Shown here in pieces: positions 13,064 to 51,600 of a DNA stretch of 64,000 nucleotides. The notes under the pieces were generated by a model. That model made no database searches. It saw nothing but the letters and a program-made list of their open reading frames with translations, and had not been told where the DNA came from. Made by a program: the position numbers and the translations under genes. Each line of letters opens with the position of its first letter. Positions within the stretch are counted from its first letter, which is position 1. The DNA comes from Mesostigma viride (Eukaryota; Streptophyta; Mesostigmatophyceae; Mesostigmatales; Mesostigmataceae), in NCBI GenBank assembly GCA_009746045.1, contig RPFO01000448.1, positions 2,465,009-2,529,008 on the forward strand, written 5' to 3'.

Positions 13064-13451
13064 GGGGGTCGCGTGCCAGGGCTTGTGGCCGACGTAGATG
13101 GCCGCCCCCTTCCAGTACACCGGCTGGCCCGCCTTGGTCTGCCGGAGCTAGCTGGAGGTAGGTCGGCCATAGCTCCCGTCGCCGTTGTTGCTGCGCCATG
13201 CACCTGGTCAAGTCGTCGTCAAGGGTGAAGTGAGTCTTCTCGAGCCGCTTGCGGCGTCTGAGAAACGAAATCTTGTCCGCTGGGCTCTCAATTAAAGATG
13301 AGAAGAAGCGGAGGCGCCCCTGCCTTACCCCGCGCGCGGGGAAGGCGGTGCAGGCGGTCAGCATCACCAAGGAGGCCCATGCGTGCAAGGATTTTGCTCT
13401 CAAACGCACGTGCAAGCTTCTCGGAATTCTCATCTTCCTCCATATATATAT

Positions 13452-24535: not shown

Positions 24536-27500
24536 TCAACCATTACTGGCAACTGTGTGGAGCGACGGCGGGGGAGCAGCTAGGCCCGAGCCTTGCTGTA
24601 GCCAGGAATGCCCCCCCGCTTGGTCCACGGATACCTGTGGCCGGGTATACTTCAAAGTGGATGGCTCATTAGACGAGCTGGAAGGCCCCGTACCTGGTGG
24701 CTTATAAGTGACTTGGGGGCGCCGGTAAGCTGCCGTGCCTGTCATTGGTATCGATGAGCCCACAGTGGCAGAACCCCCTGCCTTCTCTCCTACTGCTGCC
24801 CCCGGTAGCCCTGCCGTTCCTGGAGCGGAAGCCGGGTGGAGGCCAGAACAGGATGATCCGGAGGTAGGCAGGGTAAAAGGTGAAGGAGACACGTCGGAGA
24901 GTGACGGCTTGAAGGTGTATCGGGATGGCCCACCCAGGACGGTGCCGAGGCGACCCAGCTGGGCATCGTTGACTTGGGAATTGAGCCACCTGAAAAAGAT
25001 TTTCATGGGAGGCAGGACACAGCAGGCAAGGCAACGGAAGGGTTGACCGTGGATGAATTAATCGTGGTACAGCAGGATTATACACAAGCAGAAGCTAATT
25101 TGTTGTCAAATAAGGGTATTGTGGGTCGCTCCAAAAAGATCTGAAAGGGACTATGGAATAAGATAAGCCGTTGTACACAAGGTTGCATCTTACCATTCTG
25201 GCCGCCAGAGGGATGAGAAAACATTGTTCTGAAACAACGACAGCTGGCAAGCAGGTGTCCAAGCAACCAAGACATGTGAGGCGGCTGGGAGTCGAGGTAG
25301 GCTTGACATTCCCAAGTGCAGGGTTTGACAAAAATTCCAAGTCCATCTTGGTTGTTACATGTATCTGGGCTGCTGGGCAGCGCTTCGGCAGAGACTTGTA
25401 TGAAGAATGCTTAACCTGGTGAAACCTTCAGCGGTTATAGTAATGAGACAACCGGCATATAAACCAGGTCGTCCAAATCTTCCACATTTCAGGCCTGCAC
25501 TGGCTGTCTCGCTGGTATATGGTCATTTCGATGATAGTGATAGTGACAGAAAGACGAATGGTTGTCTCACTTGCCTGTGGTGATAGTGATAGTGAGGGGC
25601 GGCATCCTATCCGGCTGCATGCAGGTACGACAATGCGCTGGTGCTGAAGAAGAGGACAGTGCACAAGTTTTTCCTTGTAACAACAGCTAGGGTATGCATC
25701 TCACATGGCTGCGACAAATACTAGTATATTTGACACACGTGTGCACTGGCCATGTAAGAGGAACCTCCCGTACCTGCCCTGCCTGCCTCCTTATTATCGC
25801 TGAAAACAACGTGCCAAAAAAAAGTCTCATACTTGGGTGCTAGTTTCACTGGTTTTCTCATCTACGAGCATGCTGTCTAGGAGGCCATGGGTGACATGCC
25901 AGGCCCTGCCCCATAAACTCTGGGGTCAGCGAAGAGGTAAGTTTGGCCTCTCTCTAAAGAGCGCAACTCACTGGATCATCTGCTGGTTTGTCTGCAGCAA
26001 CTTCTGTGCTTCCTCTAGCTTGCCCTTGAGGTCCTGAACCTGCTTGCCCACAGCAGGTGGCCACGACGGCCAGCAGGGTGCAATCAGATGGGAGTCAGTA
26101 TAGCAGGAGAGTCAGAAGAGAAAGTTAGGCATCAGGGAATGAAAGCATGAGTGACTGAAGGGAGTGCGAGTCAGAAGAGAACGCCCTCATATACAAAGAA
26201 AAATAAATAACATGTTAATGATGAGAGTCGTTAGGTGGCAAAGGGCCAGGATAACCACGCAAGCACACATACACAATGCGAGCACCAGAGGGGATTGGGA
26301 ATGGAGGAGAATTTCAGAGAGTGATTATAAATATTAAGAAAACTCCAGAGATGTACTAGGAATTGTCACAGATGTTTCATGGCAGTTCCTTTCCTCGAGC
26401 TCCAATGCTGGGATTGCAGTTGCCTTCCCGGCATTGTGAACCGCTCTAAAGCGTTTTGCTCGCCATGTTCAAAGTGAACAAGGGCACACGTAACGTTTGT
26501 CACGGGCAGATAGTCTGGCTGGGTACCTGGTGAGCAGGTTGACCACCGAGCCCACTCCACCGCTTGAGGCCGACCCCCTCCTGCCGCTTTGCACGGCAGC
26601 CCCTGCTTCAAAACTGACTCGGCTCTGCATTTCAGGTTCCCCACATATTTCGCTCTCGCCCTGACACTCCCATCAGCAAGCCTATCTCTTCGTGTGTGCC
26701 AGCAGGCCAATGAGAATCGGCATCTGAAAACATGTCTACCCACATGGTTGTCTCTTAATAATAGCAATTACAATAACAATAATCACGTAGGCTCTGGTGG
26801 ACTCTTGACATCCACGCACCGTCGCCTTGAGCAGGTCACACTCCTTGCACTTGGCCTCGAGCTCCTGCCTCGATCGCATGAGCTCGAGGCTGGCCTTGTC
26901 GAGCGCGGCCTGTCGATCCACGAGCAGCTGCTCCTGCTGCGATAGCACAGAGGACTTGAGCTTGAGCTTGGACTTGGCGTTGCGCACGTCCGACTGCGCA
27001 GGATGCCGGGTGAGGTGGTTGGCCACATGCATGGGTGGGTGGGGAATGGGGGGATTGGGGTGGGTTAGGTTATGTGGGTGGGCACATGGTTTCAGGGGGG
27101 CACATGAATGGGTAACGCACGTGGGTGCATGCGGTGGTTGGTGTGGGCATGTGCATGACCTTGCTGCATCTGGTGGCAAGCCGCTAATTAGGCTTGCAGT
27201 CGACTAACCACCAGAGAAGTTGTCCCTTCCCCCTGCCTCCCCTGGTTGAGCTTCGCAGGGCTGCACTTGTTCGGTAGCCTGGAGGGGCAGTATCCACACT
27301 TGGTCAAGATATTGACTGAACCTAAGAATCATTGGCTGACCAATGAGACACGTGACTCCATGGGAATGCCAGGGATCCTCGTCATGACTTTCTGTGCCTA
27401 TCCACCTGCCAATGATGTGCATGTAGCTGTTGTTCCCCTCTGCCTGCCCACCTGCAGGTGCCCGACGGTCTGGTTCCCCTTGGTATGCCCAAACAACCTG

Positions 27501-30500
27501 CCAATGCTCCAATGAGGCTTGCCCTTCTTGAGCCCAAACAGCCTACCAATGCTGCCATGAGGCTTCCCCTTCCTGTGCCCCAGCCACCGGCTGGTGCTCA
27601 ACGACCTAAACTGCCCCTATTCTGCCCCACCCACGTGCATGTGCTCAATGGTCTAACAGCCCCCAACTTGTCACACCCACCTGCAGGTGCTCGATGATCT
27701 GGTTCCCCTTCTTGATCTCGGCCGCGCTGAGCGCCACGCGTTCCTCCTCGCGCATCAGCGCCGACCGGGTCTCCTGCAGCGCGGCCTCGAGCGCCCCCCT
27801 TTGCAAGGGGAGTACATATAAACAATATACTTTTACTGGGAAGGGTAAGTTGCAGGATATGATTAATTGATATTGAGAACGTTTCTGAACTATACATGCA
27901 GGTGAACATGAGCGAGACAACCAGCGCGGACATGACATTGTGAAGCAAGTATATTGATGGAGGCAAAATTGATTGTCAAAACACCTTAATTATATGCTCA
28001 GGCTGCAGCCATCCTCACTCCCCCACAGCCCCCTCTTCCGCCCATCCACCTTGCCCACACACCATGCCCACGTGCATAAGGTCTGCCAAGGCAATGGCAG
28101 TCCGGACCACTTCCATGACAACATCGTGGACGCTGCGCTAATCAATGTCCAAGCCACAAATATCGAGATCAATTATTAAACACCTCATTCATAGAAAGAG
28201 GGACAGATACATGCAGGGGAGGGGGCTATTATACCAAGTCGCGAGGAAATGACTGCACAATTGGCATGGCAGGTAAGAAGCGATAGCCCGTAGCAGCCAC
28301 AAGTATGCACAGCGAGCACGGGAAGGCTATATAAGGTCATTGCTTGTTTTCATGTATTATTATTCACCTGTGTGAGCTGGCAGCCTCAGCCTGCGCGGTG
28401 AGGTTGGCGATAAGGCCATCCTTGTCCTTCACCTGATGGGACCAGCCAGGTGGTTGGACAGGTGCAGGGCGCACGCACAGGCCAAATGTGCAGATGAGAT
28501 GCCTGTTAGATGCTGCCATGAAGGCAGCTCAAGCCTGCAGGGAAACATGGTCATTTGCCAGTAATGATCCTAGCGAGCGCTCCATGTGCATGACAATGTG
28601 TGATGGGCCATGCTACACCATGGGAGAGGCGACTGCCCTAACAGGTCGCAAGCAGGAACTGCCATATAAACTTGTCAATTGATCTGAAGATAAAGCCAAC
28701 CGAACGCAAACTCTGGAGGAGAGCTCACCAGCTGGAAGGACCAATAGTTTCAACTATGTGCCAATTTGTGTGCGTAAGAAGCCAACAGATGATGCCAGAC
28801 TGGAGACATGTCCTGTGCTGCTGCCTGCCAATAGGATGCCCATCTACAAAATGTAAGGGCAACCCTTATAGACAAAAAATCAATGCAGAGCTGAGGTGCG
28901 AATATGTAAACATGAATACAGATATGTATGGTTATAACATACGCATACAGACTTTGATGACTCTCTCAGCTAGCTTCATCCTCCCTGGTCTTCTTGCATC
29001 CCAAAATTCCCTGCCTAGTCTTGCTTACGCACCGAAGTATTCATTCTGGACTACTGTATGTATGATATACTATGTGCGGACCTTCCAGATGTTGCGGCCT
29101 GCGCTGGTCGTCTAATTGCTATATAATGTGTGGTGATACCAACCGGCCACCCAGCACTGCTCGTCCACCTACCTCCTGCTCGAGCGCGCTGAGCCGGATG
29201 AGGTGCTGGTGGAGCGACTTGCCGACCTCGTGGTGCTTGCCGTCCAGTCCCAGGTTGTCGTCGCGCAGCTTCTGGCACTCGGCACGCAGCGCGCTGGCGT
29301 CCGCCTCGCTGCCCCGCAGCTTGGCACCCAGCTCCGCCACCTTCATCTCGAGCGAGTACTTGCAGTCGGTCAGGGAGCGCACCTGCAGGGGGGACGGCGC
29401 GCCGGGCGCCGCGGGCACGGTATTCATGGGTCGATTCAAGAGTCACAAGGGCATTTATCGATGTTGCCTTGCAGCCGCAAGGCACGAAGAGCAGCATTGG
29501 TTCATATCTAGCAGTGTCATGTTTATCATCCTGGCCTGCGCTGGTTGTCTCATGGACATCGAGTAGCGCATAGTTTCTCAAGGGCAAGGCATCCCACTTG
29601 TGGCAGTAGAATTTCCGCCTACAGCCATCGGTGGTAAATATGCCGTGTCTTCCCCAGACTACAGGGTTTCCCCCCAGATCTCATGATTCCCCGCAACTTT
29701 GATCATCATTTAGAATTATGATAGTGGTATGCAATTACAATCATCTCATGAAACTACAAATAATTACTACAATAGACATATAATTTTAAAACAATAAGAA
29801 CTACCTACCAGAAGTTATTGTTATCAGTCAGGAAGATGTTAGATTATATCTGTTGTTTGTAATGGTCCCCAGCATGCCCCCACCTGCTCGTCCAGCTTTG
29901 CATTAGAAGCCACAAGCCCTGCGTTCCGCTCCTCCAGCTTGGCCTCCGCCTCGGCGCGCGCCTGCTCCAGCCGACTGGTGGCCTGAGCAAGCTGGGCCAT
30001 CGCCTGGAAGTGGGGTGGGGGAGGGGGGAGGGAGCGGGGGCACGACAAAGAAACAGGACAAGGGCACGGAACGATGAGGAGGGACAAGGGGGCGGGATAA
30101 GGGGCCGGTGCAAAGGAGGGGGACGAGGGATGAAGGATGAGGGATAAGGGATTAGGGATACGGGACCAGCAACAAGGGGTGAGTATGTACTAAAGTAGTA
30201 CAAATTTGTGTCTCCCATTTCACAAAGGAGTCAAGTAATGATTGGGAGTGTGCCATGGACATACCACCAGTAAAGGGTGATTTGCACATACCGCCCGATG
30301 GGCAACAGAAGCGATAGCAGCGGCCACATCAGCAGCCAGTTCCACTTTTCTGGCTCTCCCTAGCAGGCAGGCTCCTTTTCCACAAGTGTGAAACAAGTGG
30401 GAGCGCTTTCGCTAGCAGCGAAAATCATTCACCAAGCAGCTTGGAATATTTCAGAAGCAGCCAGACTCCGCCAGTAGCAGACAGGCTTTGCGCAAGCCGC

Positions 30501-30872
30501 TTTGGGCCTTGTTGGCCGCCATGCTCCCTCATTACGTTGGATATATTTAAAGAAGCCACAGTGACTATTCTCCTCACCTCCTCCTTGGTGCGCGAGAGCT
30601 GCAGCGCATGCTCCGCACGTGTCTCCATCAGCAGCGATGTGTTCTGCTCGCGCAGCTGGGAAAGCTCGCTGGTGGTGGTCATGAGATGGGGTGGGGTGGG
30701 TTGAAATGTGCGTGGGAGGGGTGGGGTGGGGAAGTTAGATGTGGGCAGTGGAAGTGGTGGAAGGGTCAGGGGGGGAGAGAGGGGGGCGAGGAAGGGGGGA
30801 AGGTTGCAACGGGAAAGGGTGGGTGGGTAGGAGGTGTGGAAGGCTTGTGATTTGCTGGGATTGGTATGTGTG

Positions 30873-30952
<80 letters not shown>

Positions 30953-33190
30953 AGGCGGAGGGTGGGTGGGCGGGCGGGCGGGCGGGCGGGCGGGCGGGCG
31001 GGCGGGCGGGCGGGCGGGCGGGCGGGCGGGCGGGCGGGCGGGCGGGCGGGTGAGTGAGTGTGTGTGTGCGCGCGCCTGTGTGTTTCTGCCAGAATACGTG
31101 AAAAGGTGGGGAAACAGACCGTGAGCACTTCAGGCAGCGCTTCGCATGGGCTAACTTAAGGACTGGCTGGCCATGGGAATAAGGGGTCACGTGGTAGAGA
31201 CTACAGGAGATAGCCACGATGAAACCGAAGCATACCATCAGTACCGCTGCACTGCCAGCATCAATCCCAGGAGACTACTTATCTACCGTTTTCCCACACT
31301 GCCAAGTAAAAGAATCCAATGAGAGGCTTTCAAGCTTATCAAATGGCGTCCAGATTTGAGACACTTGGCATAGCCGGGCAATGGCCAGACAAACTATTTC
31401 CAGGGATTGAAGCTAGCTCTAGCAACCTAGATGAGCAACGAGCCGAAAGAGGGCAATACCTGCATAGGAGGGGAGCTAGCCATGAACCTCAACCAACAAT
31501 ACTTGTGGTTGAATCCCAGCTTCAGAAAGTAAGTGGACTTTACACCCCATTTTGGTTCCATTTGGTTCCATTTGGTTCCATTTGGTTTCATTTGGTTTCA
31601 TTTGGTCCCATTTGGTCCCATTTGGTCCCGTTGGTCCCATTTTGGTCCCATTTGGTTCCATTTGGTTTAATTATGTTATTTATTTACTATTTATCTTGTA
31701 CATGTTGTATATGTTATTTCTGTTAGGTATGATATTTACTAATTATTTATGTTGTACAAGATGTAATTTACCAGGTAGGCATTCCATTCCATGACACCCC
31801 ATTGGCTCCCTAGGCTATTTGTGGTTCTTACCTCCGTTGTTTCTCATTCTCCTCAGATAGCCCGTCAATCGACTCGTTCGCGCTGGTCAGCCGGGTCTTC
31901 AGCTCCGTAATTGCAGCCTGCGCCCCAATAACAACCGTTCGACGTGATCATAGCACACAATTATAAGGCTGGCCAGTTAGGGTAGGTCTCTGGTAGGGTA
32001 AGGGTAGTACGGTAGGTGGTATGGTAGGTGGGTCTCTGGTCTTGCGAGTTGCACCACTGTAGTAGGCGAAAGGGCTGATGTCTATCTCCAGCATACTATG
32101 TTGTGGACATTGGCTTTGCCTCTGACACCACATGCACCCTTGGTTCAGCATCATGTACAACAATGCACTTTACAGCCATGCAAAGGGTTAATTTTATGGC
32201 AATCAGAGCGCAAAACGGTAAGGGAATCCACAAGCATTGCTAATGTGTTCTTCACACTTGTCTTTCAATCACAATCATGCTAGAAAAGCTAAGTGAATGA
32301 CATATGTGGTAGGTATATGGACAGTGCTGGTTGGCCTCATAACAGTATACAGAGATACAGAGATGTAAGGACGAGAGTACAACTGGCAGGCATAATATAA
32401 CCAGGCATGGCACCAAACAAACGACAGGATACGATTCAGCAACATGTAAACTCTAGTACATATTATTGCTGGCATCCTTCATGATAGCGAGGCCGCAAAG
32501 CAGTTCTACAAACAAGTGCCCACTTACCAGAGCGTCCAGCACGCGGCTCGCTAGGTATTGCTTTATGGCCGAGTCGTTGCCAGGCCGGAACAAGAGAGAG
32601 ATGTGGCAGAGCTGTTTGAAGTGATTGGTCTCTATGATGCTGAAAGTTGATTCTCCATGCCGCAGAGATAGGACCGCGACGAACCTGCATCCGCATTAAA
32701 TGTCCTGCAACGGGGTGTCATTATTATGATGTGATTGCTGAAGGTGAACAGTTGACCTCAACGCGAAGAAATGAAAAATGGGAAGTGAGATTCAAAGTCT
32801 AATCGTAGCAACAGGCCATCCGCGCGACATGCACCTAGGATTAATCTCCTGAGCCGATTCGATGCATAGCTCGAGGAGCTCCACCATTTTTGACGGAAAT
32901 GTGGAAAAATCTACCAGTATACTCTGTTCCGCCTTCAGGTTCAAGAAATCATCCTCGTTAACCTCCATGGTGTGCAAGAAAAATAAATCACGCTCATTTG
33001 TGACCTGCATCCGCAGCCACCTGGTGCAGCGGTTGCTGTGAAGCGTGGTCTGTTTACTGCTGCCCAATGCCATCCGAATGGTAAGATTGTCAGGCTTGCT
33101 GTCTCCTCCGACATGGGTGACTTTAATAGGGCATTCCTTTTCAAACACGATTGTTATATCTTCAGAAACATTGGACGGAGCCCTATCCAT
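24536..33190 (-). CDS. SAS6: SAS-6, centriolar cartwheel protein, complete gene (11 exons)
   Basis: Exons on the minus strand (all GT-AG, phases agree): 33190-32835, 32684-32528, 31917-31832, 30668-30578, 30003-29884, 29382-29173, 28432-28368, 27798-27681, 26993-26820, 26039-25972, 24989-24536; about 632 aa. Residues 1-171 are the SAS-6 head domain, with DLFFLHTMEVNEDDFLNLK, QSILVDFSTFPSKMVELLE and SIIETNHFKQLCHISLLFRP. Phe141 in ETNHF matches the Phe known to mediate head-to-head dimerisation (F131 human, F145 Chlamydomonas). Residues 172-482 are heptad-rich coiled coil. TNQQMIQWLN (476-485) is the conserved end-of-coil motif, and a disordered Ser/Pro tail follows. SAS-6 oligomerises into the nine-fold cartwheel that templates centrioles and basal bodies. 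The start ATG has the context AAAATGG. Head to head with the TBC1D13-like gene. Confidence 0.95.
25443..25572. repeat. Short element bounded by inverted GAGACAACC, in SAS-6 intron 10
   Basis: TGAGACAACC at 25443 and its complement GGTTGTCTCA at 25560-25569 bracket about 130 bp that also contain AGGCCTGCACTGGCTGTCTC (25491-25510), a variant of the dispersed repeat core. Confidence 0.5.
27451..27680 (-). repeat. Array of degenerate copies of SAS-6 exon 8 3' end plus donor site
   Basis: On the minus strand exon 8 ends AAGGGGAACCAGATCATCGA...CACCTGCAG|GTGGGT. Inside the following intron this junction recurs about five times in 230 bp with decay, for example GACCATTGAGCACATGCAC|GTGGGT (near 27633), GGTCGTTGAGCACC...GGTGGCT (near 27585), two AAGCCTCAT(T/G)G.AGCATTGG.AGG units (27500-27560), and finally AAGGGGAACCAGACCGTCGG...CACCTGCAG|GTGGGC at 27451. 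Translation gives KKGNQIIEHLQ for the exon and TKGNQTVGHLQ for the last copy. Confidence 0.85.
27914..27930 (-). repeat. Dispersed repeat core, reverse orientation
   Basis: GAGACAACCAGCGCGGA; reverse complement of the TGCGCTGGTTGTCTC core. Confidence 0.5.
29097..29113 (+). repeat. Dispersed repeat core
   Basis: GGCCTGCGCTGGTCGTCT, one mismatch to the core; inside SAS-6 intron 6. Confidence 0.5.
29531..29551 (+). repeat. Dispersed repeat core
   Basis: CTGGCCTGCGCTGGTTGTCT; full match, inside SAS-6 intron 5. Confidence 0.65.
30874..31050 (+). repeat. (AG)n followed by (GGGC)n microsatellites
   Basis: About 38 AG units (30874-30950), then about 20 GGGC units (30970-31050), in SAS-6 intron 3. 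Long open frames across them are artefacts. Confidence 0.95.
31552..31668 (+). repeat. CCATTTGGTT/C 10-11-bp minisatellite
   Basis: About eleven units of TCCATTTGGT in SAS-6 intron 2/3 region, with alternating TTCC, TTTC and TCCC variants. Confidence 0.9.
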
Positions 33191-34030: not shown

Positions 34031-37000
34031 ATGGGCAGCACTAACCAAGACTGGGTATACCTTTCTCCTACAGAATTCGATGTAAGAAAAATTGCGGATG
34101 CCGATGCTTACGGGCTCATAAAAAGTCAACGCGTAGAGGAAGAGGTATGCTTTGGATTCGGCACGTTTCCTTTCCCGTTGACGCGTACAGACGATGATGG
34201 TCGCCCCTCGGCTGCATTGCCAACTATCTGCTATTGCGTGGAATTGTATCACGCCCTAGTGATCCACCGCTTGCTGTGGTCGTTTTCATTCCATATGCCT
34301 TTTTGCCGGCCCTGCCCCCTAATTTTGCGTCCACAACCTAATCCGCTTGAAATGCATTTCTGTGGCATTCCTCATTCCGAGTGTGCGCACCTGTGTCCCC
34401 ACACATCTCAGCTGCGCAAACCAGTCATCTCGCTGAAGAACCTGCGTAAATTAGCGATGGACGGCCTTCCCGAGAATGGCGGGCTGCGCTCCAAAGCTTG
34501 GAAGGTGAGCCCGCGCCAACCTACGGCATGGACTTGATAAGCTTCTCGTGATGCAGCGATGTATCGTCGATAGGTGTCGCGTGCGCATGAATGGCATATA
34601 TTACATAAATGGCGTCCGTGTGTGACAATTTTGATGGGATACTTGTCAGGGGGCCACTGTTGTCCCCTGGTTGCGCACATCCAATAATTCTGGTTGCATC
34701 AGATACTCTTTTGAAGTGGGCATTCTCTCCCCAAGGGTTTGCCTACTACACGGGAGGCTTTGCGACCTAAGCGGGCGCGACCTAGCTAACACTGGCACTG
34801 AAGATAATCTTAAAGCCATAAGAAAATAACGATGGGGAGAAATTCTGGGCAGTCTTGCCCGGCTCTCTCGCCATGACCGTAAGAGATGCCATCACTTCCA
34901 TGGCAAGAATGGTTGGCCACATGTGTGGCCGGCAGTCTCATTATTGTCCCTTTTGTTCTAAACACTCCTTCCCCAGGCCACTTTTTGCCTAATCAGTCCT
35001 CACCCAAATCCACCATGTTCCTAACAGTTTGTGCTCCATCGCTAGGGGTTTACGCAGAGCAATGACTGAGGACAAGAAAACATAATAACTTTCGACAACA
35101 GCAGTTACTTACGACAAAAGAGCTTGGCGTGCCGACCATCTGTGGGCAATTGTGAGAATGCACTTCCTCAACTTGGTGGCATGACCAACGGAGCTGGTGG
35201 GTACGACCACGAGTCGCCATCAGCGATGGCGTAAAGGAGCATATACGAGGGGTCAAGATGCGGGATAGGTAGGCAGTTGCGGGGGGTCACCCTGCAATTG
35301 CCGTGTGCATTTTTTCCCCATGACACATGTATGGCCATATGTATGATACATGTATGGCCACATGTATTGCCCATGGCACATGTATGGACATATGAATCTT
35401 GCTGGCTTGAGTGAGCAGGTTTTGTGCGTTGCGTTTGGATCACTTTTGGACCCTCGATGGCGCTGCTCTGCTCCTTTCATTTCTCGGAACGCCACCCCTC
35501 ATGTATCTGCCACGCCGTCACTATGACACTATGACACCATGACACCATGACACCATGACACCATGACACCATGACACCATGACACCATGACACCATGACA
35601 CCATGACACCATGACACCATGACACCATGACACCATGACACCATGACACCATGACACCATGACACCATGACACCATGACACCATGGCACCATGACACCAT
35701 GACACCATGACACCACGACGCGATGACACCATGACATCATGTGCTCATCATGATAATGTTTACACCGCTATGGCGCGGGTCACAATGACGGCTATGGTGA
35801 TACTGCGTGGTCACTATGCCACGACCACCAGGTGCTGCTGGGATACCTGCCTCCTGAGACGGCGGCGTGGCCGGCTGAGCTGGCGACCAAGCGCGCGCAG
35901 TACCGGGACTTTTGCAAGGAGCTGTTTGTCAACCCGGTGCGCAGATGCTACAGGATTAGGGTGTGATGGCTTGATGGTTCTGTGATGCTCTATCAACCCG
36001 GTGCATAGGGGCCACACCGTTAGGAGGTTGCTACAGGATTAGGGTGTGATGGCTTGATGCTTCTATGATGCTCTATCAACCCGGTGCATAGGGGCCACAC
36101 CGTTAGGAGGTTGCTACAGGATTAGGGTGTGATGGCTTGATGGTTCTATGATGCTCTATCAACCCGGTGCGTAGGGGCCACACCGTTAGGAGGTTGCTAC
36201 AGGATTAGGGTGTGATGGCTTGATGCTTCTATGATGCTCTATCAACCCGGTGCGCAGGGGCTACAGCAGTAGATGTGCCTACAGCAATCGTTGTTCCATT
36301 GGGCGGCAGCAATAGCGAGCACAGCAGATCGAGAACACCAGATCGAGAACAGCATAGCGAGCACAGCAGATGGAGAACACCAGATCGAGCACAGCAGATC
36401 GAGAACACCAGATTGAGCACAGCAGATCGAGAACACCGTGTGGAGCACAGCAGAGGGGTCGAGGGACGTTGTGAAGTGGCAGCGGCAGGTCTCATATAAT
36501 GGCATGGATGCATTCCCTGTTAGAACGGTGTACACATTTTTGCAATGTCATTAGTAACCATTAACGACATAAAGTAATAATCTAAGCATCGTGACTATCA
36601 CAAATTGGCGTTACCTTATCATCATCATTATCATCATTATCATCGTCATGGCTGTTTTTATACTACCGAATGTTAACGATCGCTTTTAGTATCTCTTACT
36701 TATTACACCTGGCTACTGCGCCCCCCATACGCGCGACTTTCTTGGGTACGCAAATTCAACGTTTTGATCCCTCCGTTTATAATCTTTTTTCATGTTTCAA
36801 CCCCTCCATAAAATTTTCCTTCAGAGAGACTTGATGGGCAACGCCATCAGTCGAGACCCCTTCTCCTCCGACCCCAGGCGCAGCGACGCCATTCCTGGTG
36901 CTGCTCCCTCGGCCAGGCCTGACGCAGGCAACGGCTCAGCCAATGATGATGGCGGATCTGGCGGTGATGGAAGTGGGGCCACACCCTTGGGCTTTACCAT

Positions 37001-40000: not shown

Positions 40001-42964
40001 TAAGGTTTGGGTGGTGTACTAATGGGGGATAAAAAGGTTTTTGTCTTACCTTCCTTCTTACCTTCAACTGAGGCATGGGATGGTTGTTTGAAGATCACGA
40101 AGAGGAGTTTGTGGTGAGGGAGGAGATGGGAGGTGGGTGGTGTATTAGCAGTTGGGTGGTGGATTAGAGGGAAGGCAGGTTCCGATAACTTTCCGGTGAG
40201 GGAGGAAATGGGATGGAACGGTTGGGTGGTATATGAGGGGTTGGGCTGTTAATGCGAGTGGAATGAGGTAGTGTTTCTTACTAGTTTGGCCTTTGTTCAT
40301 CTGTGCAAATGGGTCCCTATGTGTTTTGATCGGTGTGTTCCACTTGCCAGGACAAAATAGATAGAGCCCACATGCTTTTGCATGCGCTGTTTCATCCGTG
40401 CATGCGTGTATGCGTGGATGGGTGCGCCTGCCTGCATTGCTGTGCATCGTGTGCGTGCGCTCGTGCGTGCGTGGATGTGTGCCGTGTGCCAGGACAATGC
40501 GGAGCCGGACGCCTTTTTCTGTTTCGTGCAGCTGCTGGGAGAGTTCCGGGACCATTTTTGCAAGCAGCTGGACAACAGCGAGGTGGGCATCCACTCCACC
40601 ATGGCGAGGCTCATGGAGATGCTGCGGCAGCAAGATCCCCAGCTGCACCACCACCTGACGAACGTAGCCAAGGTAAGCAGAGCTGCACCACTACCTGAGG
40701 AGCGCAGCCAAGGTAAGCAGGCGGCATTGATTAATGCGGCATTGATATATTTGAGTGATTAAACTTATTACAGCAGCCAAGGTTTTGGCAGCAATGATAA
40801 TGGTCGTAAGGGTGAGGGGACACCACGACCTGATGAACGTGGCCAATGTAAAAGGCAACAATAAGAAGAACTGATAGAAATAAGAACTAAAAAGATGAAG
40901 TAAAAATGGCCCACGTGGGGGGTACACTGACAAAATGATGAGGTTGATGGGTGCCACTCCCCGATGAATGTGGAAACACACACGTTGGAAGGCAACATTA
41001 ATGATAAATAGTGTTACGTCCCCAGATTTACACTCTCCCCAGATTTAACCTGAGCGACGTAGCGAAAGATCAACTGTGTCAGTATTAGGACAAATCAAGG
41101 TGGCCTAATGCAGTTGCGCTTCACGACTGGGGTCGTGAGATATCTGGCACCGCGACTTGATGCCAAGCTAATTAATACACACTTATAATGGCTAGCAAGA
41201 CCATTTACAAATGGATAGTTGCCCCAGGTTCAATGTGTAGGCTTAACCGCACTTAACATTCATCAAACCAAGAGGACGAGACCTTCGTCCTCGGACCAAT
41301 TTCAGTCACCTAGGTGCGCTACCGACGGCGGAACTGGTAAGCAGGCGTGGTGCAACGGGCACCGACCTTCCAGAACCTACCAAAGCACCACTCACAAGAT
41401 TCTGTTTGGCATCTAGGGCCGACCCGGCCCTGAGAAGATCTTGTACCGCAACCTAGGCCCAAAATAACTAGTCCGAATCACACAAACTATCTCAATTTCA
41501 TACCAAAGTCCCGAACTACGGACAAATCCCCAAATAAGTCCCGAAATGAGTCCTAAAGTCCCACGGACTATGGAAGCAAGCCAAAAGCACAATTAATTTC
41601 ATTGTTGCGCCCGTTCGACAAAGGGTCGGGCCGCAACAAAAAGCTCATGAATAACGATCAAATAAACTAATGATTAAAATAATAATTCGCATTATAGCAG
41701 CCAAGGCGGCTGACAACTGTGGTAAGGGTGAGGGGCACCACCAACTGATGAGTGCGTGACTAAGGGGATGGCCGCATTAATAATCATATACTACTAAGTG
41801 GCCAAGATCCGATTCATGGTGGTTGTCACGAAAATGATGGCGTTTTTCGCGAGTTCTGTGGTGGTTGTCGCAAGAATCCTGAACTAACCTGCATTGATCA
41901 ACTCAATGAACATTGAGATTGCTTGGGTCAACCTGATAGGCCTGCGTTGATGTGCTTGAAACCATTATGGGACACTCTTGAAGTGTACTAGCTATAGCTA
42001 CCTTCACAGATTTGCTGCGCTGCACACCAACGGTCCTACAAGTGCGGCTTTGGGGGGCCGCAGTTGTGAGGCCTTTATGAGCTGGTGCACAAATTCGGCT
42101 TGCCATGGATTTGAGGTTAGCTTTGACAGCTAAGGCGCCTCGCTGTGCCATGCGATGATGGCCAGGCACTTTGGACTTTGGGCTAAAAGAGTCTTGTTTG
42201 GCTTGTACTTGTCAGGTGTATGACTACAGCTGATGAGCAAGGTTAGAAAGGTTTTTTTGGTAGGGGCTGCAAGTTCCACAAGGGAAATGTTTGTTCTGAA
42301 CGTGGTCGGTTTTGTGGCAGGTGTGTGGTAAGTTGGTTTCACAGGTTACGTTTAAGATAAGGATCTAAGGATCAAAGGATTTCGGGATTTTGGACAGCAT
42401 TGCTCAGTTAACGCTGGCCGCTTTTATAATTGCCAGAAGTCTGGGTGAATAGATATCTGGTAATAACCTCGAACGCACATCATTTTATTATATTCCTAAA
42501 CATGTCGTCTCCTTTTTTGCTGATACGCGGACCTTTTCATTTTGAGTTCACCATCTTGAACGATTGGCAGAAGACATGGCATCCACTGCTATGCTTATGC
42601 TACCGTCGGTGACTCCTTGTGCTATTGAGGTGGCTCCTCAAACAGGGGCATATCTTGGGTGATCAAGGGAAATCCACGGAATCGATTTCGGCCTTTTTCT
42701 GATTTTATCCCTGCTCCGTTCGCCCTACTGTCTCCCACCCCTTCGTGGCCCTGCCTTGATGCCTCCCCCCCCACCTTCCACCCACCCCCCTCATTTATTT
42801 GCCGCCACCACCACCACCACCACCACCACCACCACCACCACCACCACCACCACCACCACCACCACCACCACCACCACCACCACCACCACCACCACCACCA
42901 CCACCACCACCACCACCACCACCACCACCACCACCACCACCACCACCACCACCACCACCACCAC

Positions 42965-43024
<60 letters not shown>

Positions 43025-46000
43025 TGCCACCGCCACCACCACCACCACAACCACAACCACAACCACAACCACAACCACAACCACAACCACAACCACAACA
43101 ACAATGACAACGACGACAGGTCAACCCCCAGTTCTACGCGTTTCGATGGCTCACGCTGCTGCTGACGCAGGAGTTCTCGTTCCCGGACTTGCTGCGGCTG
43201 TGGGACTCGTTGCTGAGCGACAGCGTGGGCATCATGGTGCGTGGGTTCAATTTGTGTTTTGTGTTGTGTTGTGTTGTGTTGTGGGTGGGTGGGTGGGTGG
43301 GTGGGTGGGTGGGTGGGTGGGTGGGTGGGTGGGTGGGTGGGTGGGTGGGTGGGTGGGTGGGTGGGTGGGTGGGTGGGTGGGTGGGTGGGTGGGTGGGTGC
43401 GTGGGTGGGTGGGTGGGTGGGTGGGTGGGTGGGTGGGTGGGTGGGTGGGTGGGTGGGTGGGTGGGTGGGTGGGTGGGTGGGTGGGTGGGTGGGTGGGTGG
43501 GTGGGTGGGTGGGTGGGTGGGTGGGTGGGTGGGTGGGTGGGTGGGTGGGTGGGTGGGTGGGTGGGTGGGTGGGTGGGTGGGTGGGTGGGTGGGTGGGTGG
43601 GTGGGTGGGTGGGTGGGTGGGTGGGTGGGTGGGTGGGTGGGTGGGTGGGTGGGTGGGTGGGTGGGTGGGTGGGTGGGTGGGTGGGTGGGTGGGTGGGTGG
43701 GTGGGTGGGTGGGTGGGTGGGTGGGTGGGTGGGTGGGTGGGTGGGTGGGTGGGTGGGTGGGTGGGTGGGTGCAACGGGTGGGTGCAAGGGGTGGGGTATT
43801 AGGGTGCATGCGTGTGTGCGTGCTTGGACGGCGCGTCTTACGTGCTTTGGAGGGGACAGGAGGGGGGAGAGGGAAGGCATGATGATAAATTGCGTGCACG
43901 TGAAATAAATTAATAATTGATCAACTTGCTGTGTGTGTGCAGGTCCATGTGTGCGAATCTGATGTGCAGGCGTGGTGTGGATTGTAGTCTTTGTACATGC
44001 TTGCTGTGTGTATGTGTTTGTGTGTTTGCAGGCGGGCTTATATGTGTGGGTGAAGGGGTGGGTTGCATGAACACTGTGAGCGCTTGTGTGTGTGTGTGTG
44101 CTTGGGGTGTGTGCGCATGTGTGTGGGCGCGCGTGCGCGCGTGGAATGGCTGTGGGAATGCAAGATGGAACACAAAGTACAAAAAGGAGTCAAATTAGCA
44201 ACGAATGATATTTATCATCAGGGGGGCCTTTCTTATGTCAGAGGCTGGCAGTGAGCTGTGGTGATAACTCACACACCATACACAGACTGCTTCTACACTA
44301 ATGTAGTACTACTGTAGTCTATACTACTGTAGTCTATACTACTGTAGTCTATACTACTGTAGTCTATACTACTGTAGTCTATACTACTGTAGTCTATACT
44401 ACTGTAGTTGTAGTATAGGGCGTGCACTTCTTTCATGATGATAAATATATAGTAGTATATGGTCCTTAAGTGCCCCACGATGATCCTTCAGTGATTCTTA
44501 AATTATATACAGATTGTGATACGATGAACGCTGCGTGCCCTGCATTGGTGGGTCCTCGTTGCTGGCTCTGTGGTCCCCCCGTCAGAGGGTGGAGAGAGCG
44601 CATTAATGAATGAATGACCTAATTAATTAATTAATTCATTAATTAATCAATTAACACGTAACTACAGAGGGGGGATGTTTGATACCAGCCAGTGAGAAGG
44701 GCTTTCCATGACAACCAGCGTGCTCCGCGACTCGCCGACGGGAGCGCGAGACTGATTCATTAATGACGACCTGTCCATGCTATCATGATCCATTTGCTCG
44801 GGCCTCTCGGGCCATGCCTGTCCCCATGTCCACCACGGGTTGAACAGTCTCGGCCCTTTTGATGGAAAGCTCTTTCGTTGCTCGTAGCAGCGCCGCGATC
44901 ATATCACCATTTTTCTCGTTCCTGTTCTATCACTGCATCTGTACCATCTACCTGTAGCACGTAATCGCGATTCCCTCATTCCATGCTGCCTCCTTTTGTT
45001 TTTTTACTCGCGGTTGTCCCTGTGTGGCATATCTGTATGCTGCCACGGCCACAAGATGTGCCCACACTTGGCTCTGTAAATCAATCAATCAATCATTCAT
45101 GGAACTGATCTACGGCTTGGGATCTACGGTTCGGTCGTATTGGTCTCTCCTGTTGTGGATGGGGAATCTTTGCCATGCACGGGGGTTGGGACATGGCATG
45201 ACCTTGCCACTGCCGTGAGCTGGGTTGGGCTTGGGCGTGTGGTGGATGTGGGTCATTTGAATATCAAATAGAAGATTCAACTTGGGACATGCCATGTGGT
45301 TTCGGTGGGTTGGGATGTGGGACCTTGCGTTATGACCTCGTCCCCAAGCACAGCCGATGCTGCTCAACACGTGCTGCAGCATGCTGCTGTATGTGCGGGA
45401 GACGCTTCTTGTGGGTGACTTTGTCGACAACCTCAAGGTGCGCTGTATGTAATTAAATGTTGGATTCCTTACGATCAAACACCTCAAGGTGCGCTGTTGA
45501 GAGCTATATAGAGGGTTGCTTACGCTCGAGGACCTCCATGTGCAGTATTGTGCACTATCTATAGCTATATACTACTAAAGAAATAGTTACGTTTGACGCC
45601 CTCAAGGTGCACTATCTATAGCTATATACTACTTCAGAAATAGTTACGTTTGATGACCTCAAGGTGCGCTGTGTATTGCTACTACTATTCATAGAGTTAC
45701 TTACGCTTCACAACCTCAAGGTGCACTGCACATCAATTAGCATTTCAAATGGCAGATATGGCAACTGTATATGGTAGAGGTATGGCCCGCCTGCAATGGT
45801 CATTGTCTTGGTCAGGGGCTCTTACATTTATTGTTTTATCTTTCATTTGGGAACTCTGCCCCTCTGGTAGCATAAAGAACTAACTGAACTATAGCCGTTG
45901 GTTCACCACGGAAAGACAGAAGGCACATGTTAGCACATGTTGGGCCTTTGTACTTGGTGGCCTCTCTCCCAAACTTCCAGCCGAATGATGGTTCCTAGTT

Positions 46001-46959
46001 ATGGATCGGTCGGAGTATTTTACTACTACTTCAAAAGGCAATTATGGAACTCACTAGAAGCAATTGTGGAACTCGCTGGGTGTCTACTAGGGCTTGGAGT
46101 GTTCAAAGTCAAGCCAGGTCAAAGTCAAGCCAAATTTTCTGAAAGGTGCTGCAGATACAACATCACTTAATATTTGCGCACTAGGCATTAGAATAAGAAA
46201 GCCAACCTGGTCTTGCTTTATTGGCATCTTCGTTGGTGGGCATCCATTGAACTCTTGGTCGCAATTCCACATGTTCCTTGGCAGGATGTCTTGTCCCAGC
46301 TAATGATGGTCTCGTATAATTGTCCTCTTTACTACGGCAAATGTATGATACTTCCACTCATTTCCATCATCCTGGACGACTCGACGAACGTAGATAAGAT
46401 TACAGCAGGCTTGAGCTCCCATGGTCCGAATTCTTCCAGATTTCTGGCTTGCGCTGGTTGTCTCTTCGAAACTAATATGGAATTTTATGCGGGTTATGTA
46501 GTCAGCTTGTTCACCTGTGGCCGTCACCTACATACCACTAATTGCGTTCACCTGTGGTCACATATATAACTGATTTCTCTTCTCCATGAATACATAGCTG
46601 ATTGTGCTCATCTGTGGCCAGTGTGCTAGGTAATTACTTGCGTACGTGTCATGAGCATGGGCATGCCACGGAGTACTATGCTAATCTCATTAGAATATAA
46701 TTACACGAAAGTTACAAATATCGTCTGCATCAGTGTACTACTGGTTACCGATACTGCTGCCACCTCAAGTGTGTTTGTAATGCGGTTAAAGAACTTACGG
46801 GATTTCTCTGTTGTTGTTTCTGATGCGTAATAATTTTGTTTTGTTTCTGTTGGTATCCTTTCTTTTGGACATGCCCGGCAGCTGCTGCAAAAATACCCAC
46901 CATGCGATGTGAAGGAGATCGTCCGGGTAGCACAGTCTTTCGGCACGCAAGCGCGTTAG
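34031..46959 (+). CDS. TBC1D13: TBC-domain Rab GTPase-activating protein, TBC1D13-like, 10 exons
   Basis: Exons: 34031-34144, 34412-34504, 35832-35936, 36825-37166, 39222-39320, 39849-39977, 40493-40672, 43120-43236, 45354-45437, 46882-46959 (TAG); all phase 0 and GT-AG, about 446 aa. Family hallmarks in order: [42 protein letters not shown]...SKWNSYF, the arginine-finger motif [11 protein letters not shown] (Arg232), the glutamine-finger motif RYVQGMNE (Gln272), [58 protein letters not shown] and the end [14 protein letters not shown]. Both catalytic fingers are present, so it should accelerate GTP hydrolysis on a Rab. Residues 105-205 are a Gly/Ser-rich insert absent from animal TBC1D13. 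The first exon is the least certain. Introns are swollen by repeats. Confidence 0.93.
35521..35740 (+). repeat. (ACCATGAC)n 8-bp satellite
   Basis: About 25 units in TBC intron 2, with one GCACC and a few CACGACG variants at the right end. Confidence 0.95.
35937..36255 (+). repeat. Tandem copies of TBC exon 3 3' end plus donor site
   Basis: Exon 3 ends TTTGTCAACCCG|GTGCGCAG at 35936. The word TATCAACCCG|GTGC(A/G) recurs ending at 36000, 36083, 36166 and 36249 (spacing 64, then 83, 83, 83). Each is followed by GGGGCCACACCG and GCTACAGGATTAGGGTG. The last copy restores GTGCGCAG exactly as at the true donor. Confidence 0.92.
36305..36465 (+). repeat. GAGCACAGCAGATC minisatellite
   Basis: About nine units of roughly 17 bp alternating GAGCACAGCAGATC and GAGAACACCAGATC in TBC intron 3. 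Confidence 0.85.
37738..38846 (+). repeat. 1.1-kb pure pyrimidine tract (CCCT/CCT)n in TBC intron 4
   Basis: Over 1100 bases of C and T only, mostly CCCT units with scattered CCT units. All three frames stay open as Pro/Ser/Leu runs, and as Gly/Arg/Glu runs on the other strand, purely because of composition. Confidence 0.98.
40640..41765 (+). repeat. Degenerate copies of TBC exon 7 3' end plus donor
   Basis: Exon 7 ends GCTGCACCACCACCTGACGA...GCCAAG|GTAAGCAG at 40672. A near-perfect second copy ends GCAGCCAAG|GTAAGCAG at 40712. Further decayed copies: CACCACGACCTGATGAACG..GCCAAT|GTAAAAGG (about 40847), GCCACTCCCCGATGAATG (about 40960) and CACCACCAACTGATGAGTG (about 41745). Copies 3 and 5 share a longer unit (AGCAGCCAAGG...GTAAGGGTGAGGGG), and the LTR-like insertion at 41012-41638 separates copies 4 and 5. 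Confidence 0.82.
41012..41638. mobile_element. Probable solo LTR in TBC intron 7
   Basis: Starts TGTTACGTCCCC and ends GGGCCGCAACA, giving short inverted termini TGTTACG/CGCAACA as in many Ty3-type LTRs. Flanks AATAG and AAAAG agree at four of five positions. 627 bp, no coding capacity. Without a second LTR or internal region the call remains provisional. Confidence 0.5.
42803..43103 (+). repeat. (CCA)n/(CCG)n/(CCACAA)n array abutting TBC exon 8 acceptor
   Basis: About 300 bp of CCA units with CCG and CCACAA variants, ending 16 bp before exon 8. Confidence 0.97.
43281..43771 (+). repeat. (GTGG)n array beginning 45 bp after TBC exon 8 donor
   Basis: About 122 GTGG units with one GTGC interruption near 43399. 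A short GTGTT run links it to the donor GTGCGTGG. Confidence 0.97.
44307..44412 (+). repeat. 15-bp ACTACTGTAGTCTAT tandem repeat
   Basis: Seven units in TBC intron 8. Each unit contains the self-complementary ACTACTGTAGT-like core, so the array can form alternative hairpins. Confidence 0.93.
44590..44765 (+). repeat. TTAA-rich tail and LINE-type terminal hairpin (H8) in TBC intron 8
   Basis: 44618-44650 is a TTAATTAATTAATT run. At 44719-44757, GTGCTCCGCGACTCGCC GA CGGGAGCGCGAG is followed by ACTGATTCATTAATG. No RT sequence lies upstream, so these are minimal 3'-end copies. Confidence 0.65.
45438..45735 (+). repeat. Tandem copies of TBC exon 9 3' end plus donor
   Basis: Exon 9 ends GTCGACAACCTCAAG|GTGCGCTGT at 45437. 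Copies of ACCTCAAG|GTGC end at 45488, 45606, 45663 and 45720, plus a diverged ACCTCCATG|TGC at 45540 (spacing 51-66 bp). Most are preceded by TTACG(C/T)T and followed by GCGCTGT or GCACT. The last copy, CACAACCTCAAG|GTGCACTG, is closest to the exon. Confidence 0.92.
46443..46464 (+). repeat. Dispersed repeat core
   Basis: TCTGGCTTGCGCTGGTTGTC, with the upstream flank GATTACAGCAGGCTTGAGC shared with 24170 on. Confidence 0.6.
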
Positions 46960-48623: not shown

Positions 48624-51600
48624 TCAAATCGAGGTCAACCGCCGGCGCGCCCCCATCTCCCCCAGCACGCGTATCAGCCGCTGCCGCATGGTCGCGGTGA
48701 ACGCGAGCATGACGAGCATGAGCACGGCGATCGACATGACCACGCTGCGTGTGGACAGGTGGCGCCGTGGGAGCAGCCCATGCAGCAAGCCCCCCGAGTG
48801 CCGGTGGTGGCCTCCATGCGTGCCCTGTGGGTCTGGGAGGTGCACCCCTGTGACCACACTGCTGCCATGGCTGCTTCCTACCAGTGACCCCTCGGCAGGC
48901 GTGATGCCGCCGTGGCGGGGCCCCTCGGGGCACTCGATGACGCAGCGGGCGCAATCACACGCGCCGCCATAGAGCCGCGGCAGGCAGGCCTCAGAGACAT
49001 GGTCAAACAGACGGCGGTGCTCGTGGCGTCCCACGACGACGATCTTCTGCTGCGTGATCGGGTGCAGCCACGCCTTGACGGCGGTCACGACCAGGTTGAG
49101 AGTGGGGGAGGCGTCGGTGAGGAGCATGCGCTTGAGGCGGAGCGGGTAGTTGTGGGCAAGTGTGCGCGCGATGCCTTTCACGAGACCCAGCGGCGCGTTG
49201 GTGATGCCCACGCCGGAGCAGTCCATGACCACCACCATCTGCTCGCGCTGCTCTTCCTCAAACAGGCATGCGACCGCGTACTCGGTTTGGCTGACTGCGG
49301 GGTGATAAAGGGGGGGGCGCGGTTGGAGGAGTTGTGTGTGTGTGTGTAAAATTGAGAGAGATAGAAAGCAAAAGGAAGTGGGTTCATGTATGGACAGAGG
49401 GGGAAAAGAGGATCGGAGGGGTGGCTAAGGGAGAATGATCAAAATTACAAGTCCATTTCAAAAACGGCATGCCCTCCCCCCCCGCCCCCCACCCATCATT
49501 CCCGTCAGCCCCGCCCCGCCCCTCCCCGCCCCGCCCCGCCCCGCCCCCCCCCCCCCCATCCCATCCCGACAATGTTGGCATCATGTCGGCCCACCATGTT
49601 GGCAGCATAGGAAGCCATGCATGTGTGCACACATATGATGGGAAAGAATCCTTCCCTTCCTCACCCACCCCACCCCCACCCCACCCCCACCCCACCGCCC
49701 TCCCAACCCCATCCCAACCCCATCCCACCCGCATCCCAACCCCATCCCAAGCCCATCCCAACCCCATCTCAACCCCTCACGTACTGATGGCCTCGATGAA
49801 CCGCGCGTGGTGCAGCCTCCGGTTCTTGAACGCATCGAGCGCCTCCCCCACTTTGATCACCAGCACGGGCTCCCCCGCGAGCCCCTCCTTGTGCCAGTAC
49901 ACGAGCTTGCTCCAGCTGGTCAGCTCGGCCGCGGTCATGAACGTGTGGCCGCTGCGCCAGGCCAGGTGGGAGCGCACGCGGCGCGCGGCCACGCGCACGT
50001 CCATGCTGGACACACGCATGTAGCGGAGCAGCTCGCCGCCCTCCATCCTGGGGGAAGAGGGCGAGATGCCAGGGATGAGGGCGGGGTGGGGTGGGGTGGG
50101 GTGGGGTGGGGTGGGGTGGGGTGGGGTGGGGTGGGGTGGGGTGGGGTGGGGTGGGGTGGGGTGGGGTGGGGTGGGGTGGGGTGGGGTGGGGTGGGGTGGG
50201 GTGGGGTGGGTGGGGTGGGGTGGGGTGGGGTGGGGTGGGGTGGGGTGGGGTGGGGTGGGGTGGGGGAATAAAGTGGTGAGTAGTCGAAAGAGGTTATCAC
50301 TCGCCGCCCTCAATCATGGGGAAAGATGGCTGAATTCCAGGGGTGAGGGCGCGATGCCAGGTATGAAGGCAGGATGAGTGCGGAGTCGTAGGTGCGGGGA
50401 AGTCCAGGGGTTACAAGGGGTGAGAGAAAGGTTGAGGAGTAAAGGAGGCAACATCAACCAATGGGATTTAAAAAATCGCTCACCACCCTCCATCCTGGGC
50501 AGTGGGTGAGGTGCCAGGGATGAGGGGGGGGAGTGACGATGTCGGGCTGGGTGCGGGCCTCATGGGTTGAGAGGGTGAGGATATAGCGTGGAAAATGCGG
50601 TGAGGAGGGTGTACCGTGGATAAAGTAAGTGGGATTTAGTCGAAATGAAAATACGGTGGCAAGGACCAATCCAAAGGGGTAATCTATTTACCGTCGTCCA
50701 TCCTGGGGAAGAGGGCTAACTGCCATGGGGTGCAGTGCCAGGGAGGAGGGTGGGGTGATCAGGGGGGGGGAGTGAGGGCGGGGGAATGAGGGCGGGGGAA
50801 TGAGGGCGGGGGGATGAGGGCGGGGGGATGAGGGCCGGGTGAGTGTCGGGCCGAGGGCTAAAACAAAGGAGTTGAATAAGGGTGAGGGTGTACCACCATG
50901 TAGCGCCATGCGCGGGCAGGCGGGCCAACAATCTCGCTGCCTGCTCCCAAGGGGGCCAAAGGCACCCGCAGGCAGTCTAGTACCAGGATAAAAAGCCTAG
51001 ATACTTCTTGGCAGGCAACCTGCTGATTGACAACTAATGTCATTTGTTGCCCTTTGTTGGCAACCTGCCAGTTATCAATTCAGCATGTTCACTCTCGCTA
51101 CGCGATTCATAATCCGTTCACGCTTGTGTGGCGCAAGCAGCTTGCAGGACGGTAGGGGGGCAAGTGTAATCCGTTCACGCTTGTGTGGCGCGAGCAGCTT
51201 GCAGGACGGTAGGGGGGCAAGTGTAATCCGTTCACGCTTGTGTGGCGCGAGCAGCTTGCAGGACGGTAGGGGGCAAGTGTAATCCGTTCACGCTTGTGTG
51301 GCGCGAGCAGCTTGCAGGACGGTAGGGGGGCAAGTGTAATCCGTTCACGCTTGTGTGGCGCGAGCAGCTTGCAGGACGGTAGGGGGGCAAGTGTAATCCG
51401 TTCACGCTTGTGTGGCGCGAGCAGCTTGCAGGACGGTAGGGGGGCAAGTGTAATCCGTTCACGCTTGTGTGGCGCGAGCAGCTTGCAGGACGGTAGGGGG
51501 GCAAGTGTAATCCGTTCACGCTTGTGTGGCGCGAGCAGCTTGCAGGACGGTAGGGGGGCAAGTGTAATCCGTTCACGCTTGTGTGGCGCGAGCAGCCTGC

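What the first reader, a model, noticed from the sequence alone, without database searches (positions are those of the whole stretch)
27451..50755. Splice junctions copied into their own introns, in at least five introns of three unrelated genes
Seen directly: TBC introns 3, 7 and 9 and SAS-6 intron 8 each contain 4-6 decayed copies of the last 10-30 exon bases plus the donor site, and CRAL-TRIO intron 3 contains four copies of its acceptor junction including exon 4 bases. The genes lie on both strands and are unrelated. Copies are most exonic-looking right at the junction. Inference: introns in this genome grow by repeated tandem duplication anchored at exon edges, giving rows of decoy splice sites. 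I know of no described class of intron repeat defined this way; ordinary minisatellite expansion would not be expected to start at the exon edge time after time.
Basis: partly seen in the sequence, partly recalled or inferred. Interest (0 to 1): 0.88.

Follow-up and report, generated by a model that had tools for sequence, protein, structure and literature searches.

The report
Tandem duplications crossing intron borders
In the green alga Mesostigma viride, short stretches of intron DNA are often duplicated side by side, and some of these duplications run over the exon border and leave spare, decayed copies of a splice site in the intron; the copies are real, but in the sample tested exon edges were hit no more often than other intron positions, so no special edge-copying mechanism is needed.

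Summary
The copies are real; the anchoring is not supported. The window is Mesostigma viride: hand-built TBC and SAS-6 models equal public predicted proteins over 446/446 and 632/632 residues. TBC introns 3, 7 and 9, SAS-6 intron 8 and CRAL-TRIO intron 3 carry junction copies above chance; so do some donors outside the window, including ftsZ and a dynein heavy chain. Own-junction copies scoring at least 16 occur at 7 of 118 donors, against 9 of 4633 swapped donor-intron pairs. But intron-interior words behave alike (113 of 1571), and matched pseudo-junctions give 264 of 2938, against 9 of 118 real donors and 3 of 111 acceptors. The profile rises from exon to intron without an edge peak. Arbitrary intron anchors show a similar identity peak. 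Best reading: local tandem duplication, about 40-200 bp, runs through introns and across exon edges; events that leave the outer splice site working survive. Copies decay as non-coding DNA; their units look private to their own intron within 344 kb. A deficit of acceptor copies is suggestive, not established. A boundary-crossing tandem duplication is already in print (potato RdRp). Sample: 344 kb of one contig.

The parts
34031..46959 (+). TBC1D13-like Rab-GAP gene, 10 exons, 9 introns (all phase 0)
   Evidence: Hand model; 446/446 residues identical to jgi/Mesvir1/20932 Mv08003-RA.1
35929..36265 (+). TBC intron 3: exon 3 end and donor (35936|35937) followed by an 83-bp tandem array; junction equivalents at 36000, 36083, 36166, 36249
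   Evidence: TRF array 35946-36265, 3.9 copies, 97% matches; alignments
40641..40851 (+). TBC intron 7: exon 7 end and donor (40672|40673), 40-bp tandem copy with junction equivalent at 40712, older copy at 40847
   Evidence: TRF period 40 at 40641-40720; scores 27 and 21
45415..45735 (+). TBC intron 9: exon 9 end and donor (45437|45438) and five copies, junction equivalents at 45488, 45539, 45606, 45663, 45720 (spacing 51-67)
   Evidence: TRF 57-bp array 45550-45727
24536..33190 (-). SAS-6 gene, 11 exons, 10 introns
   Evidence: Hand model; 632/632 residues identical to jgi/Mesvir1/20931 Mv08002-RA.1; matches solved SAS-6 chains
27446..27710 (-). SAS-6 intron 8: exon 8 end and donor (first intron base 27680) and three copies, junction equivalents 46, 93 and 229 bases into the intron (about 27634, 27587, 27451)
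   Evidence: Scores 20, 16, 24; TRF period 45 at 27487-27580
48624..56394 (-). CRAL-TRIO gene, 5 exons (start codon and exon 1 inferred), 4 introns
   Evidence: Hand model; PF00650 CRAL_TRIO E 1.6e-25 over residues 196-348. No public protein scored
50030..50716 (-). CRAL-TRIO intron 3 acceptor (exon 4 begins at 50047) and three upstream acceptor copies at about 50300-50330, 50478-50499 and 50690-50716
   Evidence: Scores 23, 18, 20
51110..53156 (.). 57-bp array of 36 copies in the same CRAL-TRIO intron 3, not touching an exon: an interior counterpart of the junction arrays
   Evidence: TRF, 98% matches

Best explanation
Introns of Mesostigma viride accumulate local head-to-tail duplications of roughly 40-200 bp. 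The process does not respect exon borders. An event whose segment starts a few to about 35 bases inside an exon and ends in the intron leaves the exon and its donor intact as the first copy, and puts a copy of exon tail plus donor into the intron; the mirror event copies an acceptor. If splicing keeps to the outer site (first donor, last acceptor) the protein is unchanged and the event is near neutral; further duplication makes arrays, and the copies decay as non-coding DNA. Shown: the copies, their excess over chance, a donor rate not distinguishable from intron interiors, non-coding decay, and no dispersed relatives of the units in 344 kb. Inferred: slippage or unequal exchange as the source, near-neutrality, removal by selection of duplications that change the protein, and that the decoys are unused.
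For: Tandem structure: spacings of 40, 46-47, 51-67 and 83 in the window and 151-152 at the donor near window -15377. No edge peak: 20-base words with a copy scoring >=14 within 300 bases, donors: 0/1593 at exon -80..-20, 8/393 at the exon edge, 13/393 across the junction, 20/649 at intron +20..40, 61/1414 at 45-100, 140/2119 at 105-200, 224/3758 at 205-400; acceptors: 2/1558, 1/392, 3/392, 15/630, 48/1344, 112/2062, 172/3623. Matched anchors: real donors 9/118 against 264/2938; hand-modelled genes alone 4/21 against 98/576; predicted genes alone 5/97 against 166/2362. A uniform-duplication simulation with full tolerance, with parameters set by hand, gives a junction/interior ratio of 0.49 and 0.76; observed about 0.85. 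Mismatches between exon ends and 14 copies by codon position are 20/100, 14/112, 15/108, so no coding constraint. In 17 of 18 tested copies splicing there would add a stop (16) or only shift the frame (1); one would keep an open frame. For the five window introns the only other hits in 344 kb lie in the same intron or at its own junction. Outside the window the ftsZ junction is confirmed by an ungapped protein alignment and one dynein heavy-chain junction by an alignment with a two-residue gap six residues upstream.
Against: In ftsZ and one dynein intron the copy resembles the exon part only; the intron part is not recognisable, which faster decay of intron pairs can explain but does not prove. 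The donor ratio has a wide interval (bootstrap of the related core-word ratio 0.30-1.62), so a modest excess at donors is not excluded. Acceptors are below interior (3/111 against 252/2822, Fisher p 0.016, P(draw<=real)=0.001), so tolerance may differ between the two ends. Identity in the three blocks next to real junctions (0.64, 0.80, 0.83) is above the pseudo-anchor means (0.55, 0.72, 0.73), though inside their ranges. Of 131 donors, 108 come from my own predictor, whose donor boundaries were right in 16 of 21 checked. Only one contig was sampled.
Confidence: 0.85

Rival explanations
1. Duplication is anchored at exon edges by a specific process: exon borders are hot spots that seed intron growth.
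For: Several junctions are copied in unrelated genes on both strands; 7/118 donors against 9/4633 swapped pairs.
Against: Edge and junction rates do not exceed intron interior rates; acceptors are below interior; the depth into the exon varies from 8 to about 35 bases.
Confidence: 0.06
2. The copies are kept by selection as decoy donors that regulate splicing (for example by binding U1).
For: GT survives in 18 of 20 donor copies (19, one), 14 of 20 decoys score at or above the median of 131 donors, and in TBC intron 9 the core CCTCAAGGTGC is unchanged in four of five copies.
Against: Copies were found by matching the junction, which favours kept GT; identity around real junctions lies inside the range of arbitrary anchors in all six blocks; two copies lost the GT; using decoys would break the frame in 17 of 18.
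Confidence: 0.06
3. Mobile introner-like or other transposable elements carrying splice sites.
For: Introner elements are known from Micromonas, an alga, and introner-like elements from fungi (review passages).
Against: The repeat units resemble their own exon and have no dispersed family in 344 kb; a 128-base query from the TBC exon 9-intron 9 border found one place in the 440-Mb genome. The genome-wide searches of five longer unit stretches did not complete.
Confidence: 0.02
4. Intron gain by tandem duplication of exonic AGGT segments: the introns themselves were born this way.
For: Exon-derived sequence lies in introns; this route is documented.
Against: Where the unit is fully legible it contains existing intron sequence after the donor, so the intron was already there.
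Confidence: 0.03

Closest known systems
Boundary-crossing tandem genomic duplication, potato RdRp gene (PMC4974935; abstract and passages, section 5)
   Same: A tandem duplication runs over an intron-exon border and copies splice signals.
   Different: There it crossed the acceptor side, changed the mRNA and created a new intron, shown by RNA-seq. Here most cases are at donors, copies are decayed and often multiple, and the public gene models use only the outer sites.
[quoted passage not shown]
   Same: Local duplication puts exonic sequence with a splice site into an intron.
   Different: That model makes a new intron from exon sequence; here an existing intron is lengthened.
Introner elements (PMC3443670, passages)
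   Same: Repeats found as introns in an alga, with introner-like elements in fungi.
   Different: Introners are dispersed families; these units look private to one intron.
Intronic minisatellites (general knowledge, recalled)
   Same: Head-to-tail arrays with decayed copies, expected from slippage or unequal exchange.
   Different: Only in that the first repeat happens to include an exon end.

Membership tests
Boundary-crossing tandem duplication | Adjacent direct repeats in head-to-tail order | tested here: met
   Spacings 40-83 in the window donor cases, 151-152 outside
Boundary-crossing tandem duplication | Repeat unit spans the exon/intron border | tested here: met
   8-35 exon bases plus intron bases in most copies; in ftsZ and one dynein intron only the exon part is legible
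Boundary-crossing tandem duplication | State before duplication seen in a relative | not testable with these tools
   No related genome is held for this assembly (note)
Introner elements | Same element in many unrelated introns | tested here: not met
   No dispersed relatives of eight tested stretches in 344 kb beyond 23-29 bp matches; only one border piece was searched genome-wide with an answer
[quoted passage not shown]
   Intron positions were not compared with other algae
Exon-edge-anchored intron repeat (proposed class) | Copy rate at exon edges above that of intron interior words | tested here: not met
   Donors 9/118 against 264/2938; acceptors 3/111 against 252/2822

The most novel reading that the evidence does not exclude
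Donor ends and acceptor ends differ: duplications across donors are tolerated at the full background rate while those across acceptors are purged, because the first-transcribed site wins. For donors that is the original; for acceptors it is the upstream copy, which would change the mRNA. The genome would then be a natural record of very many splice-site competition tests, with decoy donors as strong as the used one ignored downstream of it.
Probability: 0.25. Interest if true: 0.55.

Novelty: new member of a known kind. Interest (0 to 1): 0.3.

Why it matters
It turns a suspected new class of intron repeat into an expected consequence of local duplication plus selection on coding sequence, and suggests why a reader sees the edge cases first: the exon is the fixed reference against which a decayed copy can be recognised. 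It also yields sets of similar competing donors in conserved genes (ftsZ, dynein, SAS-6), useful for asking which of several near-equal splice sites a cell uses.

Tried and rejected
Single-word tests on the 23 hand-modelled introns alone were too few to decide about anchoring; I therefore extended to 344 kb. My first gene finder merged genes across strands and was discarded; the two-strand version was used. For ftsZ it predicted a small extra exon made of the very copy under study; I left it out on protein homology. I considered that the identity peak at the junction meant selection on decoys; matched arbitrary anchors show a similar peak, so I rejected it. The acceptor deficit is significant against interior anchors (P 0.001), but the direct donor-acceptor comparison is not (Fisher p 0.14), and the neutral simulation already predicts fewer hits at edges, so I do not claim it. 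Copies inside exons were not counted; the exon-interior controls ask only whether exon words recur in the intron. Rows dropped: junctions of predicted exons with coding score under 8, length under 45 or introns outside 100-4000 bases; weak predicted exons were skipped when defining introns, so some 'introns' may hold small real exons; 13 of 131 donors and 19 or 20 of 131 acceptors failed the complexity, masking or length filters. Intergenic anchors gave 26/512, from only 24 kb. The dynein junction at 169857 aligns with a five-residue gap exactly at the join, so it is uncertain; the host frames at -15377, 216424 and -81732 were not confirmed by homology. Literature: four paper searches were answered; seven failed and one was rejected for its wording, so I make no claim that this is absent from print.
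Full report
What the window is. The window lies in a 440-Mb assembly (G000, contig C1215: 2465009-2529008). The hand-built TBC model equals a predicted protein of Mesostigma viride letter for letter (446/446, jgi/Mesvir1/20932), and the SAS-6 model equals its neighbour (632/632, jgi/Mesvir1/20931). Mesostigma is a single-celled alga at the base of Streptophyta; its genome paper gives a mean intron length of 1142 bases with 30.1% of intron space made of repetitive elements (PMC6947507, passages). The third gene is a CRAL-TRIO protein; its intron 3 acceptor rests on reading frame and domain, as the protein search scored no relative.

The observation. TBC introns 3, 7 and 9 and SAS-6 intron 8 hold copies of exon end plus donor; CRAL-TRIO intron 3 holds copies of acceptor plus exon start. 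Clear copy numbers are 4, 2, 5, 3 and 3. Spacings in the donor cases include 40, 46-47, 51-67 and 83 bases. Similar copies were found outside the window at the donors of ftsZ (window position -4676), of an unconfirmed reading frame (-15377, three copies of a 151-152-base unit), of an axonemal dynein heavy chain (164796, and a weaker case at 169857) and of another unconfirmed frame (216424), and at one unconfirmed acceptor (-81732). The ftsZ exon join aligns without gap to solved FtsZ chains. The dynein join at 164796 aligns with a two-residue gap six residues upstream. The join at 169857 has a five-residue gap exactly at the junction and is uncertain.

Is it more than chance? Yes. A 40-base word around the junction finds a copy scoring at least 16 in its own intron at 7 of 118 donors. 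Words of other donors in the same introns do so in 9 of 4633 comparisons, and interior exon words in 0 of 725. For acceptors the figures are 1 of 112, 5 of 4410 and 1 of 667. Four of the seven donors are the ones named in the finding. In the exon-only test on the 23 hand-modelled introns, SAS-6 intron 8, TBC intron 7 and CRAL-TRIO intron 3 stand out, TBC introns 5 and 9 are borderline, and TBC intron 3 is at background because only 8 exon bases are copied.

Is the exon edge special? Not on this sample. Interior intron words of the same length score at least 16 in 113 of 1571 (donor set) and 112 of 1498 (acceptor set). Requiring the match to span the anchor (score 14), real donors give 9 of 118 against 264 of 2938 pseudo-junctions, and acceptors 3 of 111 against 252 of 2822. 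Drawing one pseudo-junction per intron (122 introns) gives a mean of 10.3 hits, 95% range 6-15. Within the three hand-modelled genes the figures are 4 of 21 against 98 of 576 for donors and 2 of 21 against 51 of 559 for acceptors; within predicted genes 5 of 97 against 166 of 2362, and 1 of 90 against 201 of 2263. The donor profile by distance rises without an edge peak: 0 of 1593 exon-interior words, 8 of 393 at the exon edge, 13 of 393 across the junction, then 20/649, 61/1414, 140/2119 and 224/3758 deeper in the intron; the acceptor profile is 2/1558, 1/392, 3/392, 15/630, 48/1344, 112/2062, 172/3623. Identity blocks around real junctions lie within the range of arbitrary anchors in all six blocks, although the three blocks nearest the junction on the exon side and over the donor are somewhat above the anchor means (0.64, 0.80, 0.83 against 0.55, 0.72, 0.73).

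How it works. Local duplications arise along introns (nearest-copy distance at interior anchors: median 83, quartiles 52 and 171), presumably by replication slippage or unequal exchange (inference). Segments in introns, or running from exon into intron, leave the message unchanged if the outer splice site stays in use; segments wholly in an exon would change the protein and should be removed by selection (inference; copies inside exons were not counted). A simulation with uniform placement and full tolerance of edge-crossing events gives junction-to-interior ratios of 0.49 and 0.76 for two substitution levels, 0.34-0.43 at half tolerance and 0.09-0.12 if only one in ten is tolerated (parameters set by hand, interior rates 0.11-0.19 against 0.09 observed). 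Donors observed are about 0.85, acceptors about 0.30. The copies decay as non-coding DNA: mismatches at codon positions 1, 2 and 3 are 20/100, 14/112 and 15/108 over 14 copies, and use of the copied donor would add a stop in 16 of 18 copies, shift the frame in one more and keep an open frame in one. Many decoys remain good donors by score (14 of 20 at or above the median of 131 donors), so their neglect, if real, needs a positional rule such as first-come use; no RNA data were available to test this.

What it is probably not. It does not look like a mobile family: for the five window introns the only other hits in 344 kb are in the same intron or at its own junction, and of three stretches tested outside the window one had none and two had only 23-29 bp matches elsewhere. 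A 128-base piece of the TBC exon 9-intron 9 border has one place in the genome. Genome-wide searches of five longer unit stretches did not complete. It does not look like intron birth from exon sequence, since legible units contain sequence of the existing intron; intron positions were not compared with other algae.

Comparison with print. A tandem duplication crossing an intron-exon border is described for a potato RdRp gene, where the duplicated acceptor signals were taken up and a new intron arose (PMC4974935, section 5). Tandem duplication is a listed route of intron gain (PMC3443670, passages). The Mesostigma cases differ in being mostly at donors, decayed, often multiple, and apparently silent. 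This is a new member of a known kind.

Limits. 108 of 131 donors and 108 of 131 acceptors come from a home-made predictor whose boundaries were right in 16 of 21 checked donors and 16 of 21 checked acceptors (on the 294-kb version). False junctions inside introns would push the real rate towards the interior rate, so the hand-modelled subset is the cleaner comparison, and it is small. All sequence is from one contig. Overlapping pseudo-anchors are not independent. The acceptor deficit deserves a genome-wide test but is not established here.

Noticed in passing
34031-46959: All nine introns of the TBC gene are phase 0.
   Followed up: no
51110-53156: A 57-bp array of 36 copies at 98% matches sits in CRAL-TRIO intron 3.
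   Followed up: no
55479-55544: A short interstitial array of the heptamer AACCCTA (plant-type telomere repeat, recalled) lies in CRAL-TRIO intron 1.
   Followed up: no
37738-38843: TBC intron 4 holds 1.1 kb of TCCC-type repeats, and introns 7 and 8 hold about 290 bp of CCA-type and 490 bp of GTGG repeats.
   Followed up: no
6238-8397 and 13234-14769, 22264-23570: Open frames that look like a transposase on the minus strand and reverse-transcriptase or retroelement parts on the plus strand (by eye, no family search).
   Followed up: no
L022, about 796 and 5857 (window positions 164796 and 169857): An axonemal dynein heavy chain gene with a donor copy in one intron and a weaker, uncertain case in another.
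   Followed up: partly
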